64,000 nt of DNA from Caldicellulosiruptor kronotskyensis 2002 (lineage in GTDB: Bacteria > Bacillota > Thermoanaerobacteria > Caldicellulosiruptorales > Caldicellulosiruptoraceae): contig NC_014720.1 of assembly GCF_000166775.1 (NCBI RefSeq), positions 831,501-895,500 on the forward strand, in the 5' to 3' direction. The notes beneath the pieces are model-generated. The model was not told where the DNA came from, made no database searches, and saw only the letters and a list, made by a program, of their open reading frames with translations. A program made the translations under genes and the position numbers. This document shows, in pieces, positions 9,490 to 25,640 of the stretch (the first letter of the stretch is position 1; every line of letters begins with the position of its first letter).

Positions 9490-9498
9490 GATTCGAAT
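9490..9498 (+). repeat. Left target-site duplication of the ISLre2-family element
   Basis: GATTCGAAT here recurs at 11109-11117 directly outside the opposite terminal inverted repeat, consistent with a 9-bp target duplication. Confidence 0.7.
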
Positions 9499-11108
9499 CT
9501 TAGTGTAAAATATTTATAGGACATTGGATGGAAAAAAGCTCCCTCCTCTTGGTAGAAGAGAAAAAATGAAGTAGAATATAATGATGAAAAATAAAAAAAA
9601 GAAAAAGGAAAAACAAACCAAAGGAGGGAGCAAAATGACTGAAAATATTGTATCAAAAATAGAAGAACTTTTAAAGACTTTTGAGGAAGGATTAGAGAAG
9701 ATAGTGAAAAGGGAGAAGGATTTAGCGGAATATTCAATTGAACTTAAGAAGCAGTTAGACCTGATAGGCAAGGAGATGATAAAGGAAGCATGTGAACTTA
9801 TAGATGAATCATTGAAAGTAAACGAAGAGAGGAAGAAGAGGTATGAGGTTGTGAGGAGAGACAAGAGGGGTTTAAAGACAATATTTGGTTATATTGAATA
9901 TGAGAGAACATATTACAAAGATAAGGAAGGAAAAGGATATGTTTATTTAGTTGATATAGTTTTAGGGATAGAGAGATATCAAAGGATAGACAATGCGGTA
10001 AAGGGAGCGATAATAGAGAGAGTAGTAGACATGTCATATGAGAAGGCAGCAAAGGAAGTATTAGGGGAGGATAGGATTAGTAGACAAAGTGTAATGAATA
10101 TTTTGAAAGGGATAGATAGTAAAGAATTAGATGAAATCCAGCATAGCAAGAGTGTAAGAGGAGAGAAGAAAGTTGTAAAAGAGCTTTATATAGAGGCGGA
10201 TGAAGACCATATTTCATTACAGAATGGAAAGAAAGAGATAGCGAAGCTTGCTTACATAAATACGGGATATAAGGAAGAGAAGGGCGTTGTTATTAGGAAG
10301 GAATTAAAGGATTTGCATTATTTTAGCAGTGTAAAAGAGGATGCAGATGATTTTTGGGCAAAAGTGGGTAAGTATATTGAAGAGAATTTTGAAGTTGAGA
10401 AGATAGAAAACATATATCTTTTAGGAGATGGAGCTAATTGGATAAAGAAGGGATTAGAGTGGATAGATGGAGCGGAATTTGTATTAGATAAGTTTCACTT
10501 AACGAAGGAGATAATGAAAATAGCAGGAGGGGATAGAAAATTATTTAATGAGATTTTGAAAGCATTAAGAGAGAAGGATAGAGAGAGATTTGAGGCATTA
10601 GTAAAAGAAAAGATGGAGGAGGTTAAAGAAGATGAGTTAGCTAAGAGGAGGATAAAGAAGGGAAAGAGATACATACTTTCGCACTGGGATAATATAGTAT
10701 TAGAAGCAGCGAATGTTAATATAAAGGGATGTAGTGCAGAAGGGCATGTAAGTCATGTATTAGCAGAGAGGATGAGTTCAAGACCAAGAGGATGGAGTGA
10801 AGATATAGCAGAGACCATGGTAAAGTTATTGAGTTTAAAATACAATGGTTTTGAACTTATGAATGTATATTTAGAGAAGATAAAAGCCAAGAAAGCAGAA
10901 AGGCAAGAAGTTAAAGAAATAGCAAAAGGAATTATAAAGAACGGGAAAAGAGTACGAAAAGGTACGGAAAAGTGGAATAATATACCAGTTATAGCAAATG
11001 GTAAAGTTAACCAGTTACGAAGAGCATTAAAGTCTTTGATTAGTTGTAGCTTCTATAATGCAGGTGTATTCTAATAAAAATTTTTTCCTACAAACTCTTG
11101 ACACTATC
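9499..11108 (+). mobile_element. ISLre2-family insertion sequence, about 1.61 kb
   Basis: Imperfect terminal inverted repeats of 23 bp (left end from 9499; right end to 11108, read inward on the other strand) share TTAGTG/ATAGTG starts and end in TATAGGA/TGTAGGA, with about 16 of 23 positions matching. They are bracketed by the 9-bp direct repeat GATTCGAAT and enclose one full-length transposase. The intact ends and open reading frame suggest a recent, possibly active insertion. Confidence 0.8.
9635..11074 (+). CDS. ISLre2-family (UPF0236) transposase
   Basis: 479 residues. A helical N-terminal region carries 'GLKTIFGYIEYERTYYKDKEGKGYVYLVD' signatures (about 65-95). The DDE-type core carries 'EADEDHI' and 'LLGDGANWI', the family's acidic motifs, and the C-terminal part includes 'RMSSRPRGW'. 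ATG 9635 is chosen because AAAGGAGG sits 7 bases upstream; an upstream in-frame ATG would add only a Lys-rich tail. No frameshift is seen. Confidence 0.92.
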   Translation: MTENIVSKIEELLKTFEEGLEKIVKREKDLAEYSIELKKQLDLIGKEMIKEACELIDESLKVNEERKKRYEVVRRDKRGLKTIFGYIEYERTYYKDKEGKGYVYLVDIVLGIERYQRIDNAVKGAIIERVVDMSYEKAAKEVLGEDRISRQSVMNILKGIDSKELDEIQHSKSVRGEKKVVKELYIEADEDHISLQNGKKEIAKLAYINTGYKEEKGVVIRKELKDLHYFSSVKEDADDFWAKVGKYIEENFEVEKIENIYLLGDGANWIKKGLEWIDGAEFVLDKFHLTKEIMKIAGGDRKLFNEILKALREKDRERFEALVKEKMEEVKEDELAKRRIKKGKRYILSHWDNIVLEAANVNIKGCSAEGHVSHVLAERMSSRPRGWSEDIAETMVKLLSLKYNGFELMNVYLEKIKAKKAERQEVKEIAKGIIKNGKRVRKGTEKWNNIPVIANGKVNQLRRALKSLISCSFYNAGVF

Positions 11109-11117
11109 GATTCGAAT
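11109..11117 (+). repeat. Right target-site duplication of the ISLre2-family element
   Basis: GATTCGAAT, identical to 9490-9498. It lies only 7 bp upstream of the -35 box of the next promoter. Confidence 0.7.
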
Positions 11118-11124
11118 GGGAGTA

Positions 11125-11153
11125 TTGAAAAAATGATAAAATAGGTGTATAAT
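11125..11153 (+). promoter_or_regulatory. Promoter of the structured RNA
   Basis: TTGAAA (11125-11130), 17 bp, TATAAT (11148-11153). It predicts a start near 11160, directly ahead of the structured RNA. Confidence 0.75.
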
Positions 11154-11159
11154 AAAAAC

Positions 11160-11243
11160 AGAAAATAAAAAGGCCCTGCCAAATCGAAGCTCCAGGTTCC
11201 TACCTGGAAGGAATTTGTAGAGGCGGTGGGGCTCTATTTTTTT
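11160..11243 (+). ncRNA. Small structured RNA next to the DUF3800 gene
   Basis: About 80 nt with its own promoter. An outer stem pairs GCCCTGCC (11173-11180) with GGTGGGGC (11225-11232), including G-U pairs. An inner hairpin pairs CCAGGT with ACCTGG around TCCT (11192-11207). The outer stem is followed by seven T residues, so it is also the terminator. It abuts the 3' end of the DUF3800 gene on the opposite strand. Published comparative work describes several 'DUF3800' RNA motifs beside such genes; membership here is inferred from location only. Read on the minus strand, the same structure followed by TTTTTATTTT could terminate the DUF3800 transcript. Confidence 0.6.
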
Positions 11244-11440
11244 GCCTTACTTGGGTCAATTACATAATTTTTTGATACAAATTTCCAATGTCTATAGGGA
11301 TGAAGCCATAAATTTTTCCAACTTCCTTTTTTCCCAGTAGTGTCTCCAATATTAAAGTTCTTAAAATCTGGTCTCAGATTACAAATAAGATTTCTAATAT
11401 GTTCATAGAGTTCTTCTTTAGCTTTTGTTTTATCAAAAAA
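11234..11440 (-). pseudogene. 3' remnant of DUF3800 gene
   Basis: The minus strand encodes 67 codons ending in TAG with no start: 'KEELYEHIRNLI', then 'FNIGDTTGKKGSW', then 'HPYRHWKFV'. This is the characteristic C terminus of DUF3800 proteins, whose N-terminal part lies at 12793-13290 on the same strand. The frame ends at an in-frame TAA where the TnpB element begins. About 45 residues expected between the two halves are missing, so simple excision of the element would not restore the gene. Confidence 0.75.
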
Positions 11441-11519
11441 TTAAGCAAGAAGACTCCATCTTCTCCAAGATGGAGATGAATTGCTAAAAATATGATATAA
11501 TATTCCTCAGGTGATTAAA

Positions 11520-12737
11520 ATGTACAAAACGCAGAAAAATCATATAAGATGTGATAAACAAACATACAAACTGCTACGTTATCTTTGCCACTTTTCTAAA
11601 AACCTGTACAACTATGCTCTGTACTATATAAGGCAACACTACTTTAAAACTCAGGAATATTTGAGATATGAAAGTGTATATCATCTTGTGAAAGACAGCG
11701 AAGACTACAGACTTTTGCCATCGCAGGTTGCCCAGCAAACACTTATTTCAGTGGATGAAGCTTTTAAATCTTTTCTAAGTCTTTTGAAAGCCAAAAAAGA
11801 AGGGAAGGTAGAAGAAAAAGTTTCAATGCCTAAATACCTGCCGAAGGATGGGATGTATCAGATAGTTTTTTCGAAGGACCAGTTCAAGACAGAAGGCAAA
11901 AAAGTGCGATTGAGTCTTGGCAGGAGTTTTGCAAAAGAGTTTGGTGTAAGGTACCTGTATTTTGACCTGCCAGCTACGGTTCTGGGTAAGAAAATTAAGG
12001 AAGTCAGGATAGTGCCAAGATTTAATGGTAGATGGTTTGAGATTGAGTATGTGTATGAAGAAGAGCAACAGCTAAGTATTTTTGATTTGAGCAGATGTTT
12101 AGCAATAGACTTAGGGCTTGACAATTTTGCAGCGGTGGTTGATACCATCGGGACTGCCTTTTTGATAGAGGGCAGGTTTTTAAAATCAGTCAACCGATGG
12201 TACAACAAAGAAAGGGCAAGACTTCAGTCGATCTACAGCAGGCAAGGGATAAAATGTGGCAGAAAACTTGCTTTAGTTTCTCGCAAAAGGCAGCATATAA
12301 TTGACAATTTTTTGAATCAGGCTGTGAGTTTGATAATCAAGCACTGTTTGAACAATCAGATAGGTGCAGTAGTTGTTGGCAGGATGAAAGGTATAAAGCA
12401 GGGGATAGAGATAGGAAGAGTAAACAATCAAAATTTTGTGGGGATACCATATGACAAGTTCAAGAGGAAGCTAAAATCGAAGTGCATGTATTATGGCATA
12501 AGGTATATGGAAGTGGATGAGGGTTATACATCACAAAGATGTAGCAGATGTGGGCATGTTAGCAAAAGTAGCAGGAAATACAGGGGATTGTATGTATGCA
12601 AAAAGTGTGGGTATGTAGTAAATGCGGATATAAATGGAGCGATAAACATAGTTGCAAAGGTAGCTGGTGAGTCTGCTGTAAAGCAGATAACCAGTAGTGG
12701 GTGTGTGAACCACCCTGTGAGAATAAGGGTAGCTTGA
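11520..12737 (+). CDS. tnpB: TnpB RNA-guided nuclease (OrfB family)
   Basis: 405 residues. An N-terminal helix-turn-helix (about 1-45) and wedge region precede the split RuvC: Asp197 in 'AIDLGLDN' and Asp370 in 'NADINGA' are present. The zinc ribbon is C341xxC344 and C360xxC363. At the RuvC-II position, where most TnpBs have Glu in 'viEdL', this protein has Gly287 ('VVVGRMKG'), so it belongs to the subgroup with an altered or relocated catalytic Glu, or is inactive. ATG 11520 is preferred (AGGTG spaced by 6) over GTG 11511. Confidence 0.9.
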   Translation: MYKTQKNHIRCDKQTYKLLRYLCHFSKNLYNYALYYIRQHYFKTQEYLRYESVYHLVKDSEDYRLLPSQVAQQTLISVDEAFKSFLSLLKAKKEGKVEEKVSMPKYLPKDGMYQIVFSKDQFKTEGKKVRLSLGRSFAKEFGVRYLYFDLPATVLGKKIKEVRIVPRFNGRWFEIEYVYEEEQQLSIFDLSRCLAIDLGLDNFAAVVDTIGTAFLIEGRFLKSVNRWYNKERARLQSIYSRQGIKCGRKLALVSRKRQHIIDNFLNQAVSLIIKHCLNNQIGAVVVGRMKGIKQGIEIGRVNNQNFVGIPYDKFKRKLKSKCMYYGIRYMEVDEGYTSQRCSRCGHVSKSSRKYRGLYVCKKCGYVVNADINGAINIVAKVAGESAVKQITSSGCVNHPVRIRVA

Positions 12738-12792
12738 GATGCTACCAAACTTCTCACGAAGCCTCCACCTCTTTAGGTGGACGGTAGTTCAC
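12640..12792 (+). ncRNA. Predicted right-end guide (omega/reRNA) of TnpB
   Basis: In this family the guide RNA comes from the 3' end of tnpB plus the right end. The terminal hairpin TCCACC/GGTGGA (about 12767-12783) and the GTAGTTCAC end fit. The guide would be the bases directly downstream of 12792, that is, DUF3800 sequence. The 5' limit is a guess. Confidence 0.5.
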
Positions 12793-13290
12793 ATTTGCCT
12801 TTTTGAATTCATCTAAAAATTGGAGATTATAAATAAACGTTTTAAATTTTTCATTCTTTTCAGTTGTATCCGGCAACTTATCAAAATATGGTATCAAGTA
12901 AATTTCTTCTTTACTGTCGTTGCAATACCTAAAACCAAATGCGTGTTTAAAAAATTGATAATAAAGAAGATAAAATTCATTTTCTTGTTGTTCTTTTGTA
13001 AGTCCTACTGTTTGAAAATACTTTTGTTTAAACATAATTCTAATCTTTATTTTATTATCCTTCACAAATGAAAAATAGTATTCTATGAAACTTTTATATT
13101 TATCTAAGTACTGCAAACTAACTTTGCTCCATTTTACCTCTCCGTATAAATTAAGCTCTCTCTTTTTTTGATTTAATTTATCATTTATTTCTTGAAAATA
13201 TTTACTTTCCACAAGTGCCCCACCATAAAAATTTGTGTAATATTTTCCCTGTTTAGTAGATTCATCACAATAAATTATGTAAGTCTTCAT
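12793..13290 (-). pseudogene. DUF3800 gene, N-terminal part, truncated by TnpB element
   Basis: The frame starts at ATG 13290 (AGGAGGA upstream) and opens with 'YIIYCDES', the conserved acidic motif of the RNase H-like DUF3800 fold, then 'FYGGALV' and 'EVKWSKVS'. Genuine sequence covers about 166 residues to 'FKKAN'; the reading frame then runs into the TnpB right end and stops at 12754, giving a 178-residue hybrid. Intact DUF3800 proteins are usually about 230-280 residues. The C-terminal remnant is at 11234-11440. The truncated product might still be made, but lacks conserved C-terminal motifs. Confidence 0.8.
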
Positions 13291-25448: not shown

Positions 25449-25640
25449 TATAATTGATTATAAGAAAGATGGCATCGACAAGATTGTCGAGCCATACTTT
25501 TAAGATTCTTAATATTTAAAACTTTAAAACTAAAAAAATTAAAAAGCTGCCCTGATTTTTAAAGAACAGGGACTGCATATGAATTTGAAGACAAAATTTT
25601 TTCAAGCAAAGAAAAGGCAGACTCTGTTCTGCCTTTTTTA
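25449..25640 (+). promoter_or_regulatory. Attenuated leader of the pantothenate operon
   Basis: Extended -10 TGGTATAAT (25446-25454), then hairpin ATGGC-aTCGACAA-ga-TTGTCGA-GCCAT, then CCCTG/CAGGG, and finally a terminator AAAAGGCAGA/TCTGCCTTTT with T run (25612-25637). The terminator ends 13 bp before the ribosome site of the first gene. A 'pan' RNA motif is known upstream of panBCD genes in Firmicutes; I cannot confirm that this is one. The rest of 25352-25645 holds no gene. Confidence 0.55.

What the first reader, a model, noticed from the sequence alone, without database searches (positions are those of the whole stretch)
11125..13290. DUF3800 gene plus structured RNA split by a TnpB element
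The two halves of a DUF3800 gene flank a TnpB element, and at its 3' end lies a promoter-driven, terminator-ended structured RNA on the opposite strand. DUF3800 proteins have an RNase H-like acidic signature, and RNA motifs have repeatedly been reported beside them, so this may be a nuclease-RNA defence or toxin-like module inactivated by insertion. The gene also lacks about 45 residues at the break.
Basis: partly seen in the sequence, partly recalled or inferred. Interest (0 to 1): 0.6.

Follow-up and report, generated by a model that had tools for sequence, protein, structure and literature searches.

The report
Broken nuclease gene beside intact RNA
A bacterial nuclease gene and the small folded RNA that nearly always accompanies it have been broken apart by jumping genes, and relatives show that many phages carry the RNA alone, which suggests that the RNA controls the nuclease and makes that idea testable in ordinary Bacillus.

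Summary
Window 11170-11235 (+) is an Rfam DUF3800-VIII RNA (RF03075, 51.4 bits, cut-off 40.2), with a TTGAAA-17-TATAAT promoter and a U-run. It lies tail-to-tail with a DUF3800 gene (- strand) that a TnpB element (11434-12792) and a 145-bp loss have destroyed. A congener keeps the intact 280-aa gene and an identical RNA. So this is a known RNA family, correctly suspected.

The survey adds three things. (1) In 93 of 98 loci from many phyla the RNA sits on the opposite strand, within -33 to +52 nt of the gene's 3' end. (2) The protein is predicted to have an RNase HII-like fold; D8, E9, D136 and D188 are invariant in 77 of 77 proteins, and all 77 match PADLOC's defence candidate PDC-M04A. (3) In viral contigs the RNA is mostly alone: 37 of 40 RNA-bearing records lack any DUF3800, as do SPbeta, phi3T, Goe14 and Jimmer2. 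Solo RNAs keep the structure but mostly lack their own promoter and terminator, and many lie near terminase or portal genes.

My best mechanism, unproven, is an RNA-restrained nuclease (defence or toxin-like), with phage solo RNAs acting as antidotes. The RNA has no variable unpaired stretch, so a guide role is unlikely.

The parts
11125..11153 (+). promoter of the RNA: TTGAAA (11125-11130), 17-nt spacer, TATAAT (11148-11153)
   Evidence: sequence; both hexamers and spacer length kept in the congener, the 3 differences in this stretch lie in the spacer
11170..11235 (+). DUF3800-VIII RNA (RF03075), long hairpin with a conserved GAA / UGUAG internal loop
   Evidence: structure supported by covariation in relatives
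11237..11243 (+). U-run ending the RNA; on the other strand the same bases encode the last lysine codons of DUF3800, next to its TAG stop (11234-11236)
   Evidence: sequence
11234..11433 (-). 3' part of the broken DUF3800 gene, including its stop codon
   Evidence: aligned to intact gene in L008
11429..11433 (+). TTTAT insertion target at the left end of the TnpB element
   Evidence: shared left flank of the two identical copies; same TTTAT in the empty congener site
11434..12792 (+). TnpB insertion element (IS200/IS605 type, no TnpA gene); 145 bp of the gene are lost at its right end
11511..12737 (+). TnpB, 408 aa
   Evidence: PF07282 and PF01385
12793..13290 (-). 5' part of the broken DUF3800 gene, residues 1-166 of the 280-aa intact protein (ORF as it stands 12754-13290)
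   Evidence: PF12686; 488 of 498 bases identical to the congener
9499..11108 (+). ISLre2-type element (UPF0236 transposase 9581-11074) flanked by the 9-bp repeat GATTCGAAT (9490-9498 and 11109-11117); ends 16 nt before the -35 box

Best explanation
What it is (shown): a DUF3800-VIII locus, a DUF3800 gene and a convergent, independently transcribed structured RNA of about 70 nt. Here the gene is dead (TnpB insertion plus a 145-bp loss that removes the predicted catalytic residue D189) and the RNA unit is intact. How it works (inferred): DUF3800 is an RNase HII-like nuclease. The short RNA folds completely and binds it through its conserved core (GAA / UAG internal loop and GUUCCAC-type tip), keeping it harmless or holding it ready. 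When infection stops RNA supply, the nuclease is freed and damages RNA or RNA-DNA hybrids. Phages that carry the RNA alone, embedded in their own transcripts, resupply it and blunt the system. Under this reading loss of the gene with an intact RNA is tolerated, and solo RNAs in phages are selected.
For: Identity. Tight pairing: the RNA lies tail-to-tail at the gene's 3' end in 93 of 98 loci, in Firmicutes, Bacteroidota, Proteobacteria, Planctomycetes and Chloroflexi records. Fold: AF2 model of the L019 protein, pLDDT 95, pTM 0.91; best PDB matches RNase HII, Foldseek E 6.2e-5, VIA Z 10.1, rmsd 5.8, 185 aligned. D8, E9, E50, D136, H181 and D188 invariant in 77 of 77. All 77 match PADLOC PDC-M04A. 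RNA: 23 of 24 pairs change on both sides in 91 distinct sequences; unpaired core positions GAA and UAG 98-100% conserved, so no guide-like segment. Gene broken while RNA intact: window, L020, L036, L061 (in-frame stops), L113 (frameshift), L018 (C-terminal remnant). Solo RNAs: 37 of 40 RNA-bearing viral records have no PF12686; none in SPBc2, phi3T, Goe14 or Jimmer2. The Bacillus subtilis control rings for the RNA and not for PF12686. Precedent: phage pseudo-ToxI RNA neutralises ToxIN (PMC3475682, abstract read).
Against: No activity, binding, expression or infection data. Solo phage RNAs often sit near terminase or portal genes, which fits a phage-specific job as well. Solo RNAs are 67-86% identical to their nearest gene-linked RNA, so no close host match was seen. 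Tail-to-tail gene order and single-copy RNA are unlike type III toxin-antitoxin operons. Gene neighbours include R-M and MADS genes but also many housekeeping genes, and no control rate was measured. Early stops could be sequencing errors in drafts.
Confidence: 0.45

Rival explanations
1. RNA as activating cofactor: DUF3800 is an RNase HII-like nuclease that works only as a ribonucleoprotein, the RNA shaping the active site or recognising an invader; phage solo RNAs are decoys or inactive competitors.
For: The gene is almost never without its RNA (93 of 98 tail-to-tail, 3 more with an RNA elsewhere). PIWI/Argonaute domains, RNA-loaded nucleases, are the next structural matches (Z 7.0). A TPR-DUF3800 protein is encoded with some Cas12 systems (PMC10910872, passages).
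Against: No variable unpaired segment that could guide. Broken genes next to intact RNAs and abundant solo RNAs fit an antidote better.
Confidence: 0.25
2. Solo phage RNAs have their own job in phage late gene expression or DNA packaging, and DUF3800 systems took over such an RNA or watch for it.
For: 13 of 27 solo-RNA clusters have a terminase or portal gene (one an HNH/terminase-like gene) within about 3 kb among the neighbours scanned; chromosomal solo RNA L016 precedes a terminase small subunit. Most solo RNAs lack a U-run: 8 of 37 have at least 8 U in 14 nt, against 73 of 91 linked RNAs.
Against: The rest lie beside integrase, tail or lysis, replication, antirepressor or unknown genes; in SPbeta the RNA lies between yonN and yonK. 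The same core is kept as in gene-linked RNAs. No expected rate for terminase neighbourhood was computed.
Confidence: 0.15
3. The RNA is only a convergent terminator or cis-antisense regulator of the DUF3800 mRNA.
For: Overlap with the gene's 3' end is the rule, and the U-run is encoded by the gene's C-terminal lysine codons.
Against: Three viral loci carry the RNA on the same strand or away from the 3' end (L101, L112, L113). Solo RNAs exist in genomes and phages without the gene. Loop positions, not only stems, are invariant.
Confidence: 0.05
4. DUF3800 is a processing enzyme and the RNA is its substrate, with another downstream role.
For: Nuclease fold and strict linkage.
Against: The linked RNA already has its own promoter and terminator in most loci, so little is left to process.
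Confidence: 0.1

Closest known systems
DUF3800-VIII RNA, Rfam RF03075
   Same: Sequence, structure and neighbouring DUF3800 gene; the window copy matches over the full model.
   Different: Nothing essential; here the partner gene is broken. The Rfam family itself has no known function (recalled).
PADLOC phage-defence candidate PDC-M04A
   Same: Protein profile matched by the intact congener protein (E 1.7e-21) and by 77 of 77 relatives.
   Different: PADLOC lists proteins only and names M04A as a candidate; the RNA partner is not part of the model and no assay is known to me.
RNase HII / RNase H2
   Same: Fold (Z 10.1) and a D-E pair in the first strand, then D and D, as in RNase HII (residue pattern recalled).
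   Different: About 10% identity, no Pfam RNase HII match at E <= 1; nearly always paired with an RNA.
Type III toxin-antitoxin (ToxIN) and phage pseudo-ToxI
   Same: Nuclease plus RNA two-part unit; phages carrying the RNA part alone (PMC3475682, abstract).
   Different: Convergent gene order, one RNA copy with its own promoter instead of repeats upstream of the toxin; RNase H-type fold; inhibition not tested.
AbiF and its RNA in Clostridioides difficile (PMC12373285, search listing only)
   Same: Phage-borne protein with a small RNA partner that regulates it.
   Different: Different protein family and RNA.

Membership tests
Rfam DUF3800-VIII (RF03075) | Covariance-model score at or above 40.2 bits | tested here: met
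   51.4 bits, model 1-64
Rfam DUF3800-VIII (RF03075) | Encoded beside a DUF3800 gene | tested here: met
   window and congener; 93 of 98 relatives
Pfam DUF3800 (PF12686) | Profile score at or above 21 bits | tested here: met
   24.6 bits for the window fragment, 33.5 for the intact congener protein
PADLOC PDC-M04A | Profile match | tested here: met
   (intact relatives; the window fragment itself was not scanned)
PADLOC PDC-M04A | Proven anti-phage activity | not testable with these tools
   needs plaque assays
RNase HII | Sequence profile match | tested here: inconclusive
   no RNase HII family among Pfam matches at E <= 1 for 4 proteins, but fold match Z 10.1
RNase HII | DE..D..D active-site residues | tested here: inconclusive
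   D8 E9 D136 D188 invariant in 77 of 77; equivalence by superposition not checked
Type III toxin-antitoxin | RNA repeats upstream of the toxin in one operon | tested here: not met
   convergent order and one RNA copy as a rule (two copies in L082)
Type III toxin-antitoxin | RNA directly inhibits a toxic endoribonuclease | not testable with these tools
   needs expression and binding assays
Guide-RNA systems (OMEGA, CRISPR) | Variable unpaired guide segment | tested here: not met
   variable positions are mostly paired, unpaired core conserved
IS200/IS605 TnpB element | TnpB domains and precise element copies in the genome | tested here: met
   PF07282, PF01385; second identical copy

The most novel reading that the evidence does not exclude
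DUF3800-VIII is a widespread anti-phage unit made of an RNase HII-like nuclease and a stoichiometric RNA partner, and phages including SPbeta of Bacillus subtilis 168 carry the RNA alone as an RNA-only counter-defence, expressed from phage transcripts without its own promoter or terminator.
Probability: 0.35. Interest if true: 0.85.

Novelty: new member of a known kind. Interest (0 to 1): 0.6.

Why it matters
DUF3800 RNAs have been known for years without a function (recalled; no functional paper among those listed). The strict gene-RNA geometry, the RNase HII-like fold and the finding that phages, including classical laboratory phages, carry the RNA without the gene turn an open question into a simple deletion experiment. 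If the antidote reading holds, it adds a broad RNA-controlled nuclease defence and an RNA-only escape route.

Tried and rejected
Guide-RNA reading: rejected, because variable RNA positions are mostly paired and unpaired core positions are conserved.

Close host-phage RNA mimicry: solo RNAs were compared with all linked RNAs; best identities were 0.67-0.86, so no near-identical host copy was seen. This neither supports nor excludes the antidote idea.

tRNA-cluster reading of solo RNAs: only L140 and L156 have a tRNA-Met downstream, and L017 follows a tRNA-Asn; not general.

First protein-only scan of genome contigs with the 178-aa fragment found no relative; the alignment A1 then worked. First viral pattern had a miscounted spacer and found nothing; corrected. 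Six solo RNAs were blasted against named phages: L016, L139, L124 and L153 gave no match; L126 and L155 found SPbeta-like and Brevibacillus phages. Three Rhizobium phage rows rest on 20 bases and were dropped as chance.

Rows dropped before counts: A5 holds 77 of 92 full-length proteins (15 near-duplicates or contig-edge genes left out). A6 holds 98 of 118 neighbour ORFs, taken from 62 of 80 loci. L121 and L132 matched the pattern but not the model. Of 40 neighbour proteins given to PHROGs (10 each) several had no match. In the Fisher test (p 3e-7 by records, 4e-6 by clusters) the centre genome G420 was left out and the window kept; the two RNA sets were found by different methods, so that test is only a guide.

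Literature: a search for DUF3800 listed 11 papers; searches for PDC-M04 and for DUF3800 RNA, DUF3800 motif, DUF3800-VIII or RF03075 found none. The 2017 paper that described these motifs is not held and is recalled. RNA anti-CRISPRs were thought of from memory, from no call, and are not used.

Full report
Observation. The Rfam scan of the window gives a DUF3800-VIII RNA (RF03075) at 11170-11235 + with 51.4 bits, above its cut-off of 40.2. It is preceded by TTGAAA-17-TATAAT (11125-11153) and followed by a U-run (11237-11243). On the other strand ORF 12754-13290 matches Pfam DUF3800, and the C-terminal part of the same gene is read below 11433, ending with TAG at 11234-11236. Between them lies a TnpB element whose 1364-bp match has a second identical copy elsewhere in the genome, so the insertion looks recent.

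Empty site. A congener (G011) has the intact locus: a 280-aa DUF3800 gene, the identical RNA (66 of 66 bases), and both promoter hexamers unchanged. At the TnpB insertion 145 bp of the gene are missing. In the intact protein P0001 this is residues 167-214 and part of 215, including E176, S179, H182, Q186 and D189, which are invariant in the first alignment of 7 proteins. Upstream, an ISLre2-type element (9499-11108) sits in the remains of a gene that is whole in the congener (a radical-SAM-like protein, name recalled); it has a 9-bp duplication and ends 16 nt before the RNA's -35 box. So two transposons have hit the locus, the gene is dead, and the RNA unit is whole.

How general is the pairing? 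RF03075 was found in 11 of 398 genomes of the phylum sample, window included. Eight of these 11 (window, L009, L010, L011 at a contig edge, L012-L015) have the gene converging on the RNA, one (L018) keeps only a C-terminal remnant, and two (L016, L017) have none. A protein-led search gave 80 genome loci (best 80 of 112) and 18 viral loci. A covariance model built from 11 RNAs, plus a second model for the misses, finds the RNA tail-to-tail, -33 to +52 nt from the gene's end, in 93 of 98 loci. Three have it in another place or strand (L101, L112, L113), one has none (L079) and one gene runs off its contig (L114). The last 12 residues hold 3.3 K+R on average, against 1.9 expected from the rest of the protein: lysine codons of the protein's tail double as the U-run of the RNA.

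RNA anatomy. Two stacked helices enclose an asymmetric internal loop, GAA on one side and UGUAG on the other; a further small hairpin fills the loop in many proteobacterial copies. In 91 distinct sequences 23 of 24 pairs change on both sides, 89.0% of cells pair, and sliding the partner by one column drops this to 44-47%. The alignment was fitted to this structure, which leans the counts towards it; the first, independent MAFFT alignment of 11 RNAs gave 88.8% paired and 14 of 25 pairs with double changes. The GAA/GUA arrangement resembles a bulged-G (sarcin-ricin-like) motif; this is my inference. A single-sequence fold of the window copy is only modestly stable (z -1.53); the family covariation is the real support.

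Protein. The AF2 model of the L019 protein from a 77-sequence alignment has pLDDT 95 and pTM 0.91. Best solved matches are RNases HII/H2 (Foldseek E 6.2e-5, VIA Z 10.1, rmsd 5.8, 185 aligned), then Argonaute PIWI domains at Z 7.0. D8, E9, S10, E50, K52, W53, D136, S178, H181, Q185 and D188 are invariant in 77 of 77. An RNase H fold for DUF3800 and its link to putative ncRNAs is already stated for a Cas12-associated member (PMC10910872, passages), and a 2025 CRISPR classification calls DUF3800 an RNase H fold nuclease (PMC12669027, passage). All 77 proteins match PADLOC's candidate PDC-M04A. Neighbouring genes include type I R-M and MADS components and transposases but also housekeeping genes; no control rate was measured.

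Solo RNAs. A degenerate pattern for the RNA core found 42 viral loci. Forty score as the RNA (34 to 71 bits), and the 5' half of the outer helix, which the pattern does not specify, pairs with the 3' half (88.7% of cells paired, 161 double-change cells). Only 3 of 40 have a DUF3800 relative nearby, and the full records of the other 37 have no PF12686 at all (many are fragments). The 37 fall in 27 clusters at 90% identity. Among named phages, 20 Bacillus and 7 Brevibacillus records match a solo RNA by blast. Goe14, Jimmer2, SPBc2 and phi3T were confirmed with the model, and none of these four has PF12686. The Goe14 record itself annotates a DUF3800-VIII ncRNA, so the RNA in such phages has been noticed by annotators. 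By contrast 14 phage records (13 Riemerella, 1 labelled Shigella) carry the gene, and the two fetched have the RNA beside it.

Differences between linked and solo RNAs. At least 8 U in the 14 nt at the 3' end: 73 of 91 linked, 8 of 37 solo. A promoter-like site with 9 or more of 12 consensus matches: 56 of 91 linked, 7 of 37 solo; shuffled flanks give a mean of 7.8 against 8.9 observed for linked, and 6.2 against 6.4 for the viral set of 40. So solo RNAs mostly ride in longer transcripts. Thirteen of 27 solo clusters have a terminase or portal gene (one an HNH/terminase-like gene) within about 3 kb among the neighbours scanned; the others lie beside integrase, tail or lysis, replication, antirepressor or unknown genes. 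In SPBc2 the RNA lies between yonN and yonK.

Broken genes. Besides the window, L020, L036 and L061 have in-frame stops and L113 a frameshift while their RNAs score well; L018 keeps only the gene's end. Draft errors cannot be excluded.

Mechanism. Shown: the pairing, the RNA structure, the predicted fold, the solo RNAs and their context. Inferred: the RNA binds the nuclease; it restrains it; phages use solo copies as antidotes, like the pseudo-ToxI RNA of phage PhiTE (PMC3475682, abstract). The main rivals are an activating cofactor role and a phage packaging or late-expression role of the solo RNAs. The finding as given is a disrupted member of a described RNA family; the solo phage RNAs are what makes it worth following.

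Noticed in passing
window 9499-11108: ISLre2-type element with a 9-bp target duplication, present in several full and partial copies in the genome.
   Followed up: partly
window 25466-25579: Rfam pan motif (RF01749) on the + strand, 49 bits.
   Followed up: no
L006 (own genome, C1:2771243-2771596): A second DUF3800 gene of another subfamily, about 34% identical to the window's, with no RNA match by model R2.
   Followed up: partly
L082:4817-5018: Two DUF3800-VIII RNAs in tandem beside one DUF3800 gene in a Bacteroidales contig.
   Followed up: no
L101, L112, L113: Viral DUF3800 genes whose RNA is on the same strand or away from the gene's 3' end, against the rule.
   Followed up: no
L199:2689-2798: In SPbeta-like phage Goe14 a skipping-rope RNA is annotated about 1.2 kb from the DUF3800-VIII RNA, downstream of the HU gene.
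   Followed up: no
record OQ791282.1 (Shigella phage Henu10): Carries the same DUF3800 gene as the Riemerella phages with equal identity; the host label may be wrong.
   Followed up: no
L017:1425-1566: Solo RNA directly behind a tRNA-Asn gene in a genome without DUF3800.
   Followed up: partly
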